Shown: positions 9,662 through 19,483 of the stretch, piece by piece
How positions within the stretch are numbered: position 1 is the first letter of the stretch
Layout: the number at the start of each line of letters is the position of its first letter
Assembly (NCBI GenBank): GCA_020350445.1
Contig: CP070717.1
Location: 4,144,902-4,191,847, forward strand
Direction: 5' to 3'
DNA length: 46,946 nt
Source: Acidobacteriota bacterium
Lineage (GTDB): Bacteria > Acidobacteriota > UBA6911 > RPQK01 > JAPXNP01
Program-made: the position numbers and the translations under genes
The notes under the pieces: model-generated
Database searches by the model: none
What the model saw: only the letters and a program-made list of their open reading frames with translations
What the model was told of the DNA's origin: nothing

Positions 9662-10348
9662 TTACACGTTCTCGATCCGACGCCGGCATTCGTCGAGGAT
9701 TGTGACCGTTGCACTGGCGCCGATACGACTGACCCCGAGATTGCGGACTTCGAGCAGCTTTTCGAGGTCACGAACTCCTCCAGCTGCTTTGACCTGAACG
9801 TGTTCCGGAGACCGGGCGCGCATGAGCTTGAGGTCAGCTATAGTAGCTCCTCCCGTGCCGTAGCCTGTCGATGTCTTGACCCAGTCAGCGTTGACTTCTC
9901 CGCAGATCTCACAGAGCCTTATCTTGTGATCGTCCTCGAGGTAGCAGTTCTCAAAGATCACTTTGACTTTCTGACCTTCGGCGTGGGTGACCTCGACGAT
10001 CTCTCTGATTTCGTCTCTGACGTAACCCCAGTCGCCACTGAGAACCTTGCTGATGTTGACGACCATATCCAGTTCCTCGCCGCCATCCCGAAGGGCCTGG
10101 ACCGCTTCGGCCACCTTGATCGAAGTGGTGTGACCGCCGTGCGGGAATCCCACTGTCGTACTGGTCTTGACGGTACTTCCTGCCAGAATCTCGGCGCATT
10201 CACGAAGCCGGTATGGAAGTATGCAGACACTGGCGACGTCATAGTCCACCGCCAGTTGACATCCCGCATCCAGTTCCTTCGCCGTTAGTGTTGGCTTGAG
10301 TAGGGAATGATCGATCATCTTGGCTATATCCAGGTATGTGTAGCTCAT
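9662..10348 (-). CDS. deoC: Deoxyribose-phosphate aldolase
   Basis: Class I aldolase that reversibly cleaves 2-deoxy-D-ribose 5-phosphate to glyceraldehyde 3-phosphate and acetaldehyde. The 228 residues match the usual 220-260. The Schiff-base lysine is Lys158 (ADWVKTSTGYGTGG), the second active-site lysine is Lys187 (VQVKAAGGVRD), and Asp94 (EELDMVVN) lies at the proton-relay position. The N-terminal IDHSLLKPTLT is a family signature. AGGAG precedes the ATG by 9 nt. It follows the ROK kinase gene by 22 bp, so the two products may act in sequence. DeoC could instead act on another 2-deoxy sugar phosphate. Confidence 0.95.
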   Translation of the reverse strand: MSYTYLDIAKMIDHSLLKPTLTAKELDAGCQLAVDYDVASVCILPYRLRECAEILAGSTVKTSTTVGFPHGGHTTSIKVAEAVQALRDGGEELDMVVNISKVLSGDWGYVRDEIREIVEVTHAEGQKVKVIFENCYLEDDHKIRLCEICGEVNADWVKTSTGYGTGGATIADLKLMRARSPEHVQVKAAGGVRDLEKLLEVRNLGVSRIGASATVTILDECRRRIENV

Positions 10349-10370: not shown

Positions 10371-11348
10371 TTAGCGTCTTGCCTCCGCCAGAAGGCCGCC
10401 CTTCATTGCCAGGGCAATTCCCCCGAGTGTTCCAGCCAGGGGTCCCAGCTTGGATGGTTTAATGGCGATGTCTTCGGTCGGTACCATCCGTACTCGTTCT
10501 TCCAGCACTTTGCGAATCTGCACGAACAGCACTTCCCCCATTTGTGCGACACCACCTCCCAGCACAATCAGGTCAGGGTGGAGGGTTGTGACCATGTTGG
10601 CGATTCCTATTCCTATGTAGTCGGCGGCCTTTGTCACCACGGCGCGGACTGAGGCCTCACCCATTCTGACTGCCTCCGCCATCGTTTCAGTCGTGACCTT
10701 TGCGACATCGCCTCCTGTGATCTCATGCAGAACAGGAGCCTGCCCACCGAGCAGGAGACGGACGCCGGCTCCCGTAATTGCGGGTCCACTGGCCAATGCT
10801 TCAACGCAGCCGCGATTTCCGCACCCACACAGGGGACCATCGGGAAGCACCGTTTGATGGCCGATCTCGGCCGCGGCACCATTGGGACCCAGTCTCAACC
10901 TTCCTTCGATGACGAGCCCACCACCGATACCGGTTCCGAGGGCAAGAAAGACCATCGTTGAGGATTCTCGCCCATGCCCATAGGTGAGTTCGCCGAGGGT
11001 CGCCATCCGAACATCATTCAAGAGGTAGACCGGGCAACCCAACTTCGGCTCGAGTGTCTCTCTTACCGGGATACCATTCCAGTCGGTGGGGAAGTTGGGA
11101 AGAAACTTCGTAATGCCCTGGTGCAAGTCGATGACCCCGGGAATCCCGATCCCAACTGCATGGGGATGTTCCCCGACGTGCTGGGCGGTATCCGTAATCA
11201 GGCCCGCCATCCGCTCGAGGACCTTGATTGCGCCCTCATGGGACTTTGTGGGAACCGACTCGGATCGTTTAATATTTCCCTCAGCATCGGCAAAGGCACA
11301 CTTGATGTAGGTGCCTCCAAGGTCCACGCTGGCGAAAAGTCTGGTCAT
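10371..11348 (-). CDS. ROK-family sugar kinase
   Basis: Cytoplasmic ATP-dependent sugar kinase (ROK family: glucokinase, N-acetylmannosamine kinase and similar). Of 325 residues, the N-terminal phosphate loop is DLGGT (9-13) and the catalytic Asp is Asp112 (LLNDVR). The ATP-binding ALGTGIGGG is near 136-144. The ROK zinc signature is complete: His164 (EIGHQTV) followed by Cys174, Cys176 and Cys181 (CGCGNRGC). There is no N-terminal helix-turn-helix, so this is a kinase rather than a ROK repressor. It begins only 7 bp after the Gfo/Idh gene, with AGGAG directly against the ATG. The substrate cannot be read from sequence; in this operon it may make the phosphate used by DeoC. Confidence 0.9.
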   Translation of the reverse strand: MTRLFASVDLGGTYIKCAFADAEGNIKRSESVPTKSHEGAIKVLERMAGLITDTAQHVGEHPHAVGIGIPGVIDLHQGITKFLPNFPTDWNGIPVRETLEPKLGCPVYLLNDVRMATLGELTYGHGRESSTMVFLALGTGIGGGLVIEGRLRLGPNGAAAEIGHQTVLPDGPLCGCGNRGCVEALASGPAITGAGVRLLLGGQAPVLHEITGGDVAKVTTETMAEAVRMGEASVRAVVTKAADYIGIGIANMVTTLHPDLIVLGGGVAQMGEVLFVQIRKVLEERVRMVPTEDIAIKPSKLGPLAGTLGGIALAMKGGLLAEARR

Positions 11349-11355
11349 CTCCTGT

Positions 11356-12510
11356 CTACTCCTCGAAACCGACCCATCTCTCTTCTCGGTGGCTTTTCAG
11401 AATCATCTCGCAGAGGACGACCTCACGATGACCGGCCGAGAAGGTTGGGAAGCTGGGCTGCCGCTCATAATCACCCCGCTCGATGTACTCGTAGAAGGAA
11501 CGGAAACACTGTTTGAATGTGTCCGGGAACCCTTCATTGTGTCCGCCGGGGTAGTTCGTGTAGTGCCGGGTGGATTCGTGCATCAGTGCAGGATCCCGAA
11601 TCAACGTTTCATTTGGGCGATCCCTGTAGCCTCTCCAGAGCGTATTCGGTTCTTCACTGTTCCAGGCCAGCGCGCTTTCCGAGCCTGAAATCTCGTAGCG
11701 CAAGCAGTTTTTTCTGCCGGCGGTCACCTGGGAAACGCAAAGGCTTCCCTTTGCTCCGTTTGAAAGACGGAGGAGGATGTTCCCGTAGTCTTCAGTGGTA
11801 ATCGGCACAGCTTCCCGGGCCACCGGCTCGGTCGATTTCCCCGTAAAGGTTTCGACTTCCCCCTTTGGACGCTTGCGGACGGGATGGACCGTTCTGAGGT
11901 CGGCACAGACTGCCGTTATCTTTAGCCCGGTTATCGATGTGACGAGATCCATCCAGTGGGTGCCGATATCGGACACGGCTCGAAGCTCTCCCCCCTGTTC
12001 CGCCAGAACTCTCCAATTGTAGTCGGTGTCGTAGAGGAGCCAGTCCTGCACGTAACTGCCGTTAATGGCGTGGATCTCCCCGATCGCACCTTCTGAAATC
12101 AGTCGACTGACCTCGAGATTGAGCGGGTAGAATCGAATGTTGTAGCAGACCCCCGCCGCGAGTTGCCTTGTCCTGGCCAACTCGACCAGTTCCGCAGTTT
12201 CAGCCGAGTTCATCGCGAGAGGCTTCTCGCACATCACGTGCTTTCCCGCTAGAAGGGCTGCCCGGGCCATCTCGAAGTGCAGGACGTTCGGTACCGCAAG
12301 ATGCACTGAATCGACGCGCTCGTCATCCAATACTTCATCGAAGCTGGAATAAGCCTTCGGAAGTCCCAAACTCTCCCGTGCATCCTGCGATTCACCAATG
12401 TCACATCCGAGAATGCCTGTGATCGAAATTCCGAGTCGTCGAAGTCCCTCAACGTGGACAGGCCCGATGAACCCGGCTCCAACAACGGCTGCATTGCTAC
12501 TGAGCGACAT
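11356..12510 (-). CDS. Gfo/Idh/MocA-family oxidoreductase (cytoplasmic)
   Basis: NAD(P)-dependent sugar or polyol dehydrogenase of 384 residues. The N-terminal Rossmann fold has GAGFIG (11-16). The EKP motif of the family is at 95-97 ([10 protein letters not shown]). The C-terminal alpha/beta domain holds DIGTHWMDL with the likely catalytic Asp/His. There is no signal peptide, unlike the family member at 21308. A strong GAGGAGGAG precedes the ATG. It lies 99 bp after the BASS transporter gene and 7 bp before the ROK kinase gene, so it probably oxidises or isomerises the imported compound before phosphorylation. The substrate is unknown. Confidence 0.9.
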
Positions 12511-12609: not shown

Positions 12610-13728
12610 TCATTTCTGGGTCGGAGGGCGACCTTTCCACCAGGAGGCCAGCATAGCTCCCGACATATTCATCCAGGGGCCAAATATGGCGGGTGGAATA
12701 GCGGCCAACTCACTCTTGAGAACCTCGATGGCGAGGCCCGAAGCCATTCCTCCATTCTGGAGCCCGACTTCGATGGCGACAGTCCTGGCATCGGTCTCGC
12801 TAAGCCTGAAGAGACGTGCACCCCAATAACCGAGCAGGTAGCCGATGGCGTTATGAAACACGACAGCGACCATGATCGCGATCACAAATCCACCCATCAG
12901 GAGAGCGTCCCTGGAGAGACTCGTGATGATCGCAATGATGAAGCAGATTGAAAACATCGAGACAAAAGGCAAGCCCTTCATGATCGAAGTGGAGATCTTT
13001 GACAGGCCGGGATGCGCCTTTCCCGAACGGGTTAGGATCATGTTGACAACCAGTCCGCCCACAATTGGCACGATAATCATCTTGATGATCGCAATCATCA
13101 TCGCCCAGAACTTGACTTCCACGTAGGTTCCGGCGAGCAGGCTCGTCATCAGCGGCGTCATCAACGGGGCAATCAGGGTCGAACAGGCGGTCATCGTTAC
13201 AGAAAGAGCGACATTCCCACCGGCCAGGTAGGCCATCACGTTCGATGCTACTCCTCCGGGGCAGGAGCCGACGAGGACCATCCCGGCGGCTATCTCCGGG
13301 TCGCTCGTTGCTGTCATGGCCAGCGCCTTGCCGACGAAGGGCATGATGGCGAACTGGAGGACAATCCCGATCAGGACCGCCCGGGGCATCGTGAAAACTC
13401 TTTTGAAATCGCCAAGGGTCAACTGGGTTCCCATCCCGAACATGATGATCTGGATGAGGGGTACGATTAGCGACTTGAGTTCGAATCCGAACCAGACCAG
13501 GAACGCCGTGGGGAAGAACATCGCGGCTGCGACGAATGCCGCAACCCAGACGGTGAAAGCGAAAGCCGAGTACTTTTTGCTGCCTCCCAGGTAGACACCG
13601 AAGCAGGCGAACGTCAGGATGAGGAAGGCTCCCGCACCCGGTACACTTCCCGAGATCCATCCGATTAGGGCAAGAATCAGTGCAAGAACGCCGAGCCCGG
13701 GCAGATACTTTCGATATGTTCCTCTCAT
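12610..13728 (-). CDS. BASS-family (bile acid:Na+ symporter type) transporter
   Basis: Inner-membrane secondary transporter of 372 residues with about ten hydrophobic helices. Family signatures include GMGTQLTLGDF (about 98-108), the core SCPGGVASNVMAYLAGGN (about 154-171) where sodium-binding residues lie, and EVGLQNGGMASGLA near the end. Bacterial BASS proteins usually carry organic anions rather than bile acids. It is the first gene of a minus-strand operon with Gfo/Idh, ROK kinase, deoC and a lipoprotein, so it probably imports that pathway's substrate. The ribosome-binding site AAGGAAGGA lies inside a perfect 13-bp inverted repeat (see 13732-13816), suggesting translational control. Confidence 0.9.
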   Translation of the reverse strand: MRGTYRKYLPGLGVLALILALIGWISGSVPGAGAFLILTFACFGVYLGGSKKYSAFAFTVWVAAFVAAAMFFPTAFLVWFGFELKSLIVPLIQIIMFGMGTQLTLGDFKRVFTMPRAVLIGIVLQFAIMPFVGKALAMTATSDPEIAAGMVLVGSCPGGVASNVMAYLAGGNVALSVTMTACSTLIAPLMTPLMTSLLAGTYVEVKFWAMMIAIIKMIIVPIVGGLVVNMILTRSGKAHPGLSKISTSIMKGLPFVSMFSICFIIAIITSLSRDALLMGGFVIAIMVAVVFHNAIGYLLGYWGARLFRLSETDARTVAIEVGLQNGGMASGLAIEVLKSELAAIPPAIFGPWMNMSGAMLASWWKGRPPTQK

Positions 13729-13731
13729 TCA

Positions 13732-13816
13732 GGTCCTTCCTTTTGTTCTCCACAAAAAGGCGATCGTCAAACTTGGGAAAGGATTATCTGCAATCAAAAC
13801 CCTAAAAGGAAGGACC
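13732..13816 (-). promoter_or_regulatory. Leader RNA with SD-sequestering inverted repeat
   Basis: The 13-mer GGTCCTTCCTTTT (plus 13732-13744) is perfectly complementary to AAAAGGAAGGACC (plus 13804-13816), 59 bp away. In the minus-strand mRNA the downstream arm contains the transporter's Shine-Dalgarno, AAGGAAGGA, ending just before the ATG at 13728. Pairing would hide it. A competing stem, CCTTTTGT (13739-13746) with ACAAAAAGG (13752-13760, one bulged A), uses part of the same arm and leaves the GGACC end free. Such mutually exclusive stems resemble a riboswitch or thermosensor platform. A DNA operator is the other reading. No ligand class is recognised. Confidence 0.55.
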
Positions 13817-13849
13817 GACCTTCACGAACCCGCCTCCCATCGCACCCCC

Positions 13850-15604
13850 CTAGACCCAACGGAGAATGTGGGCGAGTCGATGCGACTCGATGGTACGGCG
13901 GGCAGAGAGCCTGACCACGACATTACGATTCTGAGAGACCAGTCGCTTCAACTCCGTCGTGAGAACGCAGAGCCGGTCATAGGTCTGTAGATCGAAATCA
14001 TCCTGTCGCTGGAGGGTTAGCTTGTCTGCTCCGGCTGGAATGGGGATCGTGCTGCCCATTTCAATTGATGAACGGTCGGCAAGTTGTCCGCCTTCCACTC
14101 GAATGACATGGACGTGTCGGGCCTTCTTGCTTCGTGATTCCCAGCAGATCGTACTTTCGGATAAAAGGCAGAGCCAGTTGGAGCGGCGCCTGAGGTGGCT
14201 GCCGCGAGTCAGGACACTTTCCATCGCCCGGGCAACTCGTTTTGGAGTCCATTCCCAGGGCGTCCGTGCCTTCTTGTTCTTCTTTTTTTCTTCCTCGCTG
14301 CTCTTCGCCGCGGCTTCTTCCCTCCGCCGGAGATGCTCGCGCCAGAGGTGTGCATTGATCCTGGCAACCCCCCGGCCGGGTGGTTGACGTTTCATCAGTG
14401 AGCCGTGCCGATCGAGGAAGCTCCGTATTCCGGTCTGGAAGACATCCTCATCGGGGATCTGCTCCTCCGAAAAGTCCAGCAGGTCGGAGGGGAACAACTC
14501 TGCAAGGTCTTGAACCGGATCTTCAAGGAGGCGAACGAGATTTGCGTACACGTCGAAAGGCTTGATCGATGGAAAAGGCCCCAGGATGTGGATCGAATCC
14601 GGGCTGGCCTTTGCAGAGGAGAGGTCCTCCGAAAGGAACACGATTTTGCGTTCACCCGTTCTGAGCGCCACGTTGTATGGTGGGCTCAGAATCTTGATCT
14701 CATCGGATTCAAGGAGGGCTGCCTCGACGGCCGATGCCGTAGGTGACACGGTTATGCTTTGCGCCTGGGTCAGCATCTCGAGGATGTGATCTGGATGGCG
14801 AGATTGTTTCTGAAAGTAGCTGTTGACTCTGCGTTTGAGTGAGGTCGCCTTCCCGACGTACAGAATGTCTCCATTCGATCGCAGCATTCGGTAAACACCC
14901 GGGCGTTCAGGAAGGTTTAAGCGAAGCTCGGAGTCCATGGGATAGACCTTTCGAGTTGATCGCTTCTTAAAGGGCACTTGCAGCCAGTCCTGAAGCTCTT
15001 TGAGGGTGCTGATCCCCTCCTCGTCTCCGAGCATTTCGACGCATGTCCGCCAGACCGATGCCGTTGCCTTGACGTGATGGTAGGCTCTCCTCATTTCAGG
15101 GACTGAATAGCCGAGATATCCCGCGATAGCACGAAGACCGCGGCGAGGAAGGTGGGGGAGCAGGCGTCGAGAGATCTCCCAGGTGCAGAGGATGTTAAGG
15201 GGAAACGGGGACTGGTCACGGCTGGAGAGATGCAGGTAGCGGAGGTAAGGCTCCTCGTACCGGGCAAAGTGGATCACCGTCGGCATTCGCTCGTCCCGAT
15301 CGGTGGATCTGAGTCCAAGGTCGGTTTCGAGTAGTCCCCAGACTTGATTCTGCGCGATTCCCTTTGCCAGGGCCGAAGAGGAGATTCCCGTTACCCGTTG
15401 CACAGCGGCCGGGACCTTGATGTTCTCGGGTACAGCGATGCGCATTGCCCGAATGGGGAAGTCCTCGGACGTTTCATCATCGGTCAAGCTAAATTTTCCC
15501 CAACCGATTTCGAGCAGGTGGCTCTTTTCCGGGTGGGGTCCTGTCGCCTGGCAGTCAATGATCAGGACTTCGATATCTCTGAGGGCCACCGGGCTGATAC
15601 TCAT
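13850..15604 (-). CDS. DEDD-exonuclease-like / GIY-YIG nuclease fusion
   Basis: Predicted DNA-processing protein of 584 residues. Residues about 10-195 have the shape of a DnaQ-like 3'-5' exonuclease, but key acids are changed. Motif I is D17-C-Q-A-T-G (Q where the family has E), motif II is HFARYEEP (Glu for the usual Asp), and motif III has HHVKATAS without the final Asp. Residues about 230-315 form a UvrC/Cho-like GIY-YIG domain: GVY (236-238), YVG (249-251), Arg258, Glu299 and Asn311 (ESDEIKILSPPYNV). The remaining 270 residues are not recognised. Its ATG overlaps the helicase stop (ATGA, 15601-15604), so the two are translationally coupled. Similar exonuclease-UvrC-like fusions are known in actinobacteria; the decayed exonuclease is the odd point. 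Confidence 0.85.
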   Translation of the reverse strand: MSISPVALRDIEVLIIDCQATGPHPEKSHLLEIGWGKFSLTDDETSEDFPIRAMRIAVPENIKVPAAVQRVTGISSSALAKGIAQNQVWGLLETDLGLRSTDRDERMPTVIHFARYEEPYLRYLHLSSRDQSPFPLNILCTWEISRRLLPHLPRRGLRAIAGYLGYSVPEMRRAYHHVKATASVWRTCVEMLGDEEGISTLKELQDWLQVPFKKRSTRKVYPMDSELRLNLPERPGVYRMLRSNGDILYVGKATSLKRRVNSYFQKQSRHPDHILEMLTQAQSITVSPTASAVEAALLESDEIKILSPPYNVALRTGERKIVFLSEDLSSAKASPDSIHILGPFPSIKPFDVYANLVRLLEDPVQDLAELFPSDLLDFSEEQIPDEDVFQTGIRSFLDRHGSLMKRQPPGRGVARINAHLWREHLRRREEAAAKSSEEEKKKNKKARTPWEWTPKRVARAMESVLTRGSHLRRRSNWLCLLSESTICWESRSKKARHVHVIRVEGGQLADRSSIEMGSTIPIPAGADKLTLQRQDDFDLQTYDRLCVLTTELKRLVSQNRNVVVRLSARRTIESHRLAHILRWV

Positions 15605-18103: not shown

Positions 18104-19483
18104 ATGAAAGTTCGATTCAGATTACTCTTCCTGTTGACGGTTACGCTCCTTTTGAGCGGCCTTATCTTTGGGCACCCGAGCGGCGGCCCGCCATTCAGGA
18201 GTGGTGAAGTCGCGGTTTACGCAGACCCAGCCGAACTTCAGGACTATACCGTCAGCAAGTTTCTTCCCTTTTCCGGGATCAGTATCGTCCAGGTCGAATC
18301 CGGCCGAGAGTGGGGGGAGGTCCAGAGCCTTCAGCGTCGCGGTTTCAAAGCCGGCCTCAATCGCAAGGCGATAGCCTTTGCCACGGCTAACGATGCCTTT
18401 TATCAGCCTTATCAGTGGCATCTCACCGCGGTACAAGCTGAAGAAGCCTGGGACGTTACCCGCGGGCTGGGTGTGACAGTGGCCGTATTGGACACAGGAT
18501 TGAGACTGGGAGGACCGGATGGGGTTTTCAGCATCGTCTCACCTTACGATGCAGTCGATGGCGATTCGGATCCAACGGATGTCGATGGGCATGGAACCCA
18601 TGTTTCCGGCACGATCGCTCAAACAACGAATAACGGGATCGGAGTTGCTGGACTGGCCTATGAGGCTTCGATCATGCCGGTCAAGGTCTTGGATGATTCG
18701 GGTTCAGGCAGCTTTGCGGATATCAGTGAAGGGATCTACTACGCTGTCGCAAACGGTGCCTCTGTGATCAATATGAGCCTCGGTACGAACGCCCGCTTCG
18801 CTCTGACCAGTGACCCGGTTATGGATCCGGCCCTGGAGCATGCCTATAACAGTAACGTCACCGTAGTCTGTGCATCGGGCAATGATGGAAGTCGGAACAA
18901 TGTCAGCTATCCTGCCATCCATCCGCTGACGATTGCCGTCGGAGCGACCGATTACAGGAACAGCGTGGTCCGCTATTCGAATCGGGGGCAGGGACTTGAT
19001 CTTGTGGCACCGGGTGGTGATACATCGAAAGATCTGAATGGCGATGGATATGGTGACGGGGTGTTGCAGGAGACCTTTGGTGGTTCTCCCCCGAGTTGGG
19101 GGTATTACTTCTACCAGGGAACTTCAATGGCCAGCCCTCATGTCGCAGCTGCGGCTGCTCTTCTGTACTCCTATGGCGTGACCTCGGCCGAGGAGGTCAG
19201 GACACAACTCCTGGAATCAGCTCTGGATGTCGGTGACGCCGGTGTGGACTCGACTTCGGGTCACGGACTGCTACAAGCACACAGCGCTCTCACCTGGACG
19301 TCAGATCCAGGCGGAGGTGGAGGAGGCGGTGGTGGTTGCACCGACAATGACGGGGATGGATTCTGCGTCCCGGACGACTGCAATGACAACAACGCGAGTG
19401 TATTCCCTGGCGCCAATGACACTAAGGGCAGACCAGGTCGTGACGGGATCGACAATGACTGCAACGGCACTCCTGATGCTTAG
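18104..19483 (+). CDS. Secreted subtilisin-like (S8) protease with MopE-like C-terminal motif
   Basis: Exported serine protease of 459 residues. A signal peptide covers about 1-23, a short pro-region about 30-95, and the S8 domain about 105-398. The catalytic residues are Asp130 (VLDTG), His163 (HGTHVSGT) and Ser341 (GTSMASPH), with Asn260 as the oxyanion-hole residue (CASGND). Nine glycines (403-411) link to a Cys- and Asp-rich tail (412-459) with CTDNDGDGFCVPDDCNDNN and DGIDNDCNG, the pattern of the MopE-type putative metal-binding motif. The tail could bind calcium or copper or tether the enzyme at the surface. The start has AAGGGG about 11 nt upstream. It is divergent from the helicase operon and about 110 bp before the next plus-strand gene. 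Confidence 0.93.
   Translation: MKVRFRLLFLLTVTLLLSGLIFGHPSGGPPFRSGEVAVYADPAELQDYTVSKFLPFSGISIVQVESGREWGEVQSLQRRGFKAGLNRKAIAFATANDAFYQPYQWHLTAVQAEEAWDVTRGLGVTVAVLDTGLRLGGPDGVFSIVSPYDAVDGDSDPTDVDGHGTHVSGTIAQTTNNGIGVAGLAYEASIMPVKVLDDSGSGSFADISEGIYYAVANGASVINMSLGTNARFALTSDPVMDPALEHAYNSNVTVVCASGNDGSRNNVSYPAIHPLTIAVGATDYRNSVVRYSNRGQGLDLVAPGGDTSKDLNGDGYGDGVLQETFGGSPPSWGYYFYQGTSMASPHVAAAAALLYSYGVTSAEEVRTQLLESALDVGDAGVDSTSGHGLLQAHSALTWTSDPGGGGGGGGGCTDNDGDGFCVPDDCNDNNASVFPGANDTKGRPGRDGIDNDCNGTPDA

What the first reader, a model, noticed from the sequence alone, without database searches (positions are those of the whole stretch)
13732..13816. Perfect 13-bp inverted repeat that buries the Shine-Dalgarno of the BASS operon, with a competing stem
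A perfect 13-bp inverted repeat within about 120 bp is very unlikely by chance (roughly one in 10,000 by simple counting). The proximal arm is the transporter's ribosome-binding site. A second 8-bp stem shares part of that arm and frees the GGACC end. The gap between the upstream gene and the ATG is otherwise unexplained. This looks like an undescribed cis-acting RNA switch controlling uptake in a DeoC-linked pathway.
Basis: partly seen in the sequence, partly recalled or inferred. Interest (0 to 1): 0.7.

Follow-up and report, generated by a model that had tools for sequence, protein, structure and literature searches.

The report
Promoter flanked by ribosome-site-burying inverted repeat
A real 13-bp inverted repeat would hide the ribosome-binding site of a bacterial transporter operon, but relatives suggest that its far half is part of the operon's own promoter, so only read-through messages from the gene upstream would be silenced; the ligand-sensing RNA switch that was proposed is not supported.

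Summary
The inverted repeat is real: arms 13816-13804 and 13744-13732, minus strand, 13/13 pairs, the longest in the window and unique in the genome. It is the strongest complement to a Shine-Dalgarno (SD) region among 206 sampled upstream regions. RNA carrying both arms buries the SD (predicted opening cost 9-11 kcal/mol, against about 4 without the distal arm). It is not astonishing genome-wide: three perfect repeats of this length and span lie in 400 kb of the same genome.

The RNA-switch reading fails its main test. The two other genomes of the family lack the proximal partner, show no compensatory change, and do not bury the SD. They do keep the outer part of the distal arm, CGGTCCTT, exactly 22 nt before ATAATC (shuffle p about 0.001), and the G001/G002 conserved block begins exactly at CGGTCC. 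This looks like a promoter: ATAAT as -10, the octamer at about -41 to -34.

Best reading: a promoter whose upstream part pairs with the SD only in read-through mRNA, as in phage T4 gene e. Whether that lock is selected or coincidental is open; the start site is not measured.

The parts
13804..13816 (-). distal arm GGTCCTTCCTTTT; its outer 7 bases belong to the conserved octamer CGGTCCTT
13810..13817 (-). conserved octamer CGGTCCTT, about -41 to -34 from the inferred start; proposed upstream promoter element
   Evidence: exact and at identical spacing to ATAATC in three genomes; 5' edge of the G001/G002 conserved block
13782..13787 (-). conserved ATAATC; GATAAT (13788-13783) is the proposed -10 element, in the loop between the arms
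   Evidence: functional role inferred
13774..13778 (-). inferred transcription start region (about 13776)
   Evidence: inference from the position of the -10-like element; not mapped
13739..13759 (-). 8-bp local stem CTTTTTGT/ACAAAAGG that overlaps the SD edge; not conserved
   Evidence: absent in L111 and L112
13732..13744 (-). proximal arm AAAAGGAAGGACC, containing the SD of the BASS gene
   Evidence: 3 nt before the ATG
12610..13728 (-). BASS-family (SBF) transporter, first gene of the operon
   Evidence: PF01758 145 bits
11356..12510 (-). Gfo/Idh/MocA oxidoreductase
10371..11348 (-). ROK-family kinase-like protein; the ROK match starts at residue 6, leaving no room for an N-terminal DNA-binding domain
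9662..10348 (-). deoxyribose-phosphate aldolase DeoC
   Evidence: TIGR00126 206.9 bits, cut-off 117.3
13850..15604 (-). upstream same-strand gene: DEDD exonuclease plus GIY-YIG domain; possible source of read-through

Best explanation
The gap before the BASS operon holds the operon's own promoter: a conserved octamer CGGTCCTT at about -41 to -34 and a -10 element (GATAAT) in the loop between the arms. Normal transcripts begin near 13776 and carry only the proximal arm, so the SD is comparatively free. RNA that reads through from the upstream exonuclease and helicase genes carries both arms and folds into a 13-bp helix that buries the SD. The transporter would then be made from its own promoter and hardly from read-through, the logic of phage T4 gene e. 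Shown: the repeat, the conserved block with its sharp 5' edge, and predicted burial only when the distal arm is present. Inferred: the start site, that read-through occurs, that burial lowers translation, and that the helix is selected rather than coincidental.
For: CGGTCCTT-N22-ATAATC occurs exactly (no mismatch) once in each of the three genomes of the family, each time upstream of BASS. A two-word match of this quality at a similar distance from the ATG arises in 0.06-0.1% of shuffles. The G001/G002 BLAST block starts exactly at CGGTCC (query base 17 = L111:9514), with 92% identity from there to the ATG and 37% without gaps in the 60 nt before. No conserved promoter-like sequence is visible upstream of the octamer. 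SD opening cost is 9.4-11.4 kcal/mol with the distal arm, 6.3 when the RNA starts just after it, 4.0-4.6 from the inferred start. The upstream gene is on the same strand 121 nt away and no intrinsic terminator was found between. T4 gene e precedent in PMC3014915.
Against: The complementary proximal arm is absent in G001 and G002, so a lock, if real, is specific to this genome. The -35 position (TTCCTT) is a poor match and the scan found no consensus sigma-70 site. No expression data. Even the short RNA has a partly paired SD (mean unpaired 0.2-0.45). Only three genomes exist in the family, two of them in one genus, so the conservation test rests on few independent lineages.
Confidence: 0.45

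Rival explanations
1. Promoter plus coincidence: the distal arm is conserved promoter DNA, the proximal arm is an ordinary purine-rich SD, and their 13-bp match has no regulatory role.
For: The distal octamer is kept in relatives without its partner. Perfect repeats of this size are not rare in the genome (3 in 400 kb). A pyrimidine-rich promoter stretch and a purine-rich SD are prone to match. Leader folding energy is ordinary (z about -1).
Against: 1 in 3000 shuffles of this gap reaches 13 bp and it is the top of 206 upstream regions.
Confidence: 0.33
2. Two inverted copies of a transcription-factor site, one at the -35 region and one over the start of the gene, acting as an operator pair on DNA.
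For: The outer part of one copy is conserved at a promoter-like position; poor -35 suggests a dependence on an activator. The arms are the only two exact copies in the genome.
Against: The second copy is absent in relatives. No other well-formed copies that would suggest a regulon. No regulator with a DNA-binding domain was found among the operon's genes.
Confidence: 0.12
3. A cis-acting RNA switch: the leader starts upstream of 13816 and toggles between the 13-bp stem and the 8-bp stem in response to a signal.
For: Both stems can be drawn and the long one buries the SD.
Against: Neither stem is kept in relatives, no compensatory change, no Rfam match. The conserved ATAATC in the loop suggests that the distal arm is not in the operon's own transcript. 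The 8-bp stem is far weaker than the 13-bp stem.
Confidence: 0.06
4. An invertible promoter or a small mobile element bounded by the 13-bp repeats.
For: Inverted repeats flank a promoter-like segment.
Against: The outer part of the distal arm and ATAATC are in the same relative order and orientation in relatives without the repeat, so the segment is not an insertion. Single copy in the genome. 59 nt between the arms is short for site-specific inversion (general knowledge).
Confidence: 0.02

Closest known systems
Phage T4 gene e (also soc, 49, I-TevI) translation lock on long transcripts (PMC3014915)
   Same: Upstream-initiated RNA carries a 5' strand that pairs with the SD; a promoter lying between would give a shorter RNA without that strand.
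   Different: Cellular genome and transporter operon; no measured start sites or translation here; the helix is not kept in the two known relatives.
Translational riboswitches that sequester the SD
   Same: An SD inside a helix and an alternative helix that can be drawn.
   Different: No conserved aptamer, no covariation, no Rfam match; the distal strand is probably not in the operon's own transcript.
Ordinary bacterial housekeeping-type promoter upstream of a sugar operon
   Same: Conserved ATAAT at a plausible -10 position, conserved upstream element, SD and ATG 47-59 nt downstream of it.
   Different: Poor -35 match; an extended inverted repeat links the -35 region and the SD in this genome only.

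Membership tests
T4 gene e-type lock on read-through RNA | SD paired in the RNA that includes the upstream strand | tested here: met
   Opening cost 9-11 kcal/mol, SD unpaired 0.00-0.02 (a prediction)
T4 gene e-type lock on read-through RNA | Promoter between the strands, giving RNA without the 5' strand | tested here: inconclusive
   Conserved ATAATC in the loop at fixed spacing; no start site mapped, poor -35
T4 gene e-type lock on read-through RNA | Much lower translation from the longer RNA | not testable with these tools
   Needs a reporter or expression data
T4 gene e-type lock on read-through RNA | Helix kept in relatives (supportive, not strictly defining: some T4-related phages with gene e also lack it, PMC3014915) | tested here: not met
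   G001 and G002 lack the GGACC partner and do not bury the SD
Riboswitch | Conserved aptamer or match to a known family | tested here: not met
   No Rfam match at gathering score anywhere in the window; little of the leader is shared with relatives beyond the promoter-like words and the SD
Riboswitch | Compensatory changes in the alternative stems among homologues | tested here: not met
   Only two homologous leaders, both with one-sided loss of pairing
Riboswitch | Ligand-dependent change of structure or expression | not testable with these tools
   Needs in-line probing or reporters

The most novel reading that the evidence does not exclude
A selected cellular counterpart of the T4 gene e lock: a promoter nested inside an inverted repeat so that a metabolic operon ignores read-through from an unrelated DNA-repair neighbour. 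A genuine metabolite-sensing RNA at this place is not strictly excluded but is much less likely (about 0.06).
Probability: 0.25. Interest if true: 0.4.

Novelty: new member of a known kind. Interest (0 to 1): 0.22.

Why it matters
If the lock is selected, it is a cheap way to insulate an operon from its neighbour without a terminator, known mainly from phage T4, and it could be sought systematically as promoters nested in inverted repeats that reach the SD. If not, the case shows how a conserved promoter element and a purine-rich SD can imitate an RNA switch.

Tried and rejected
Rfam scan of the window: no match. MAFFT alignment of the three leaders put CGGTCCTT out of register; the shared block was found by eye and confirmed by pattern search and shuffles. 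More distant BASS relatives in the Candidatus Versatilivorator group (L026-L030) have an unrelated, roughly 90% conserved leader after a tRNA gene; it holds an imperfect repeat GGAAAGGACCGGG/CCCGGCCTTTCC that does not bury the SD, and its resemblance to the AAGGACC of this finding could not be told from chance. Mobile element: rejected, single copy and partly shared with relatives that lack the repeat. Regulon search with the arm and with the spaced motif: no convincing further sites. Literature searches for bacterial cases of read-through locks found none, with narrow terms.

Full report
Observation. On the minus strand, between the end of the exonuclease gene (13850) and the ATG of the BASS gene (13728), lies a perfect 13-bp inverted repeat, 13816-13804 against 13744-13732, with 59 nt between the arms. 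The proximal arm contains the SD and ends 3 nt before the ATG. Both arms are the only exact copies of this 13-mer in the 5.13-Mb genome.

How unusual. One of 3000 dinucleotide shuffles of the 130-nt stretch reaches 13 bp. In 400 kb sampled from the same genome there are three perfect inverted repeats of at least 13 bp and span up to 130, so repeats of this size are expected by the dozen in the genome. What stands out is the position: among 206 upstream regions none has a longer perfect complement to the SD region. Allowing for the number of genes in the window, I put chance at about one in a hundred (own estimate). The folding energy of the leader as a whole is ordinary (z about -1).

Surroundings. 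The operon is BASS transporter, Gfo/Idh oxidoreductase, ROK protein, DeoC. Upstream on the same strand are a DEDD exonuclease with a GIY-YIG domain and a DinG/Rad3-like helicase. In G001, of another genus of the same family, the order helicase, exonuclease, BASS..., ROK, DeoC is the same, with a xylose-isomerase-like protein in the place of the oxidoreductase; G002 has the same downstream order. Named records of apparently the same genomes are Acidobacteriota.

Comparison of leaders. The family has three held genomes. G001 and G002 have CGGTCCTTTTATTTCGGCAAAGAGTCGGCAATAATCAC and CGGTCCTTTAAATTCGTCCCAGAGTCGGCAATAATCAC; the window has CGGTCCTTCCTTTTAGGGTTTTGATTGCAGATAATCCT. CGGTCCTT and ATAATC are kept with exactly 22 nt between. 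The exact pattern is found once in each genome, always here. Shuffles of the window leader give as good a two-word match at a similar distance from the ATG in 0.06-0.1% of cases. Between G001 and G002 the leader is 92% identical from CGGTCC to the ATG and about chance level upstream without gaps, and the BLAST match starts exactly at that C.

The partner is not kept. In G001 and G002 the SD region reads GAAAGGATGATTGATGG: the AAAGGA core remains, GGACC does not. The change is on one side only, so four or more outer pairs are lost without compensation. Predicted SD opening costs there are 1.6-4.2 kcal/mol with the octamer present, against 9.4-11.4 in the window. The 8-bp alternative stem is also missing.

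Interpretation. The conserved octamer has a reason to exist that is independent of pairing. ATAAT at fixed spacing downstream of it is most simply a -10 element, with the octamer at about -41 to -34 of a start near 13776. There is no recognisable -35, so the octamer may be an activator site or an unusual -35; I cannot tell. The operon's own transcript would lack the distal arm. Only RNA that reads through from the exonuclease gene would have both arms and bury the SD: opening cost falls from 9-11 to 6.3 and then about 4 kcal/mol as the 5' end is moved past the distal arm to the inferred start. This anatomy is that of T4 gene e, where long early transcripts are locked and a late promoter between the strands gives a translatable RNA (PMC3014915).

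What is not settled. The start site is inferred, not mapped. The helix is seen in one genome, so selection on it cannot be tested here. Coincidence of a pyrimidine-rich promoter element with a purine-rich SD is almost as likely as a selected lock.

Noticed in passing
window 11356-12510 versus L111:7164-8087 and L112:3758-4582: The second gene of the operon is swapped between genera: Gfo/Idh oxidoreductase here, a xylose-isomerase-like TIM barrel protein in G001 and G002, between the same BASS and ROK-DeoC genes.
   Followed up: partly
L026-L030, about 200 nt before the BASS gene: In Candidatus Versatilivorator-like Acidobacteriota the BASS gene follows a tRNA gene and its leader is about 90% conserved, with an imperfect inverted repeat GGAAAGGACCGGG/CCCGGCCTTTCC and a conserved CAATTGTAACCCGG; not explained.
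   Followed up: partly
G000 contig 1, 536233-537063 (L021): A second, distant BASS paralogue (35% identity) elsewhere in the genome.
   Followed up: no
L128:11048-11158: A 16-bp perfect inverted repeat (GGGTTTGGACCCGGGG, 79 nt apart) in the same genome, longer than the one of this finding.
   Followed up: no
window 18104-19483: Subtilase-family protease with a C-terminal MopE-like copper-binding motif, divergent from the helicase gene.
   Followed up: no
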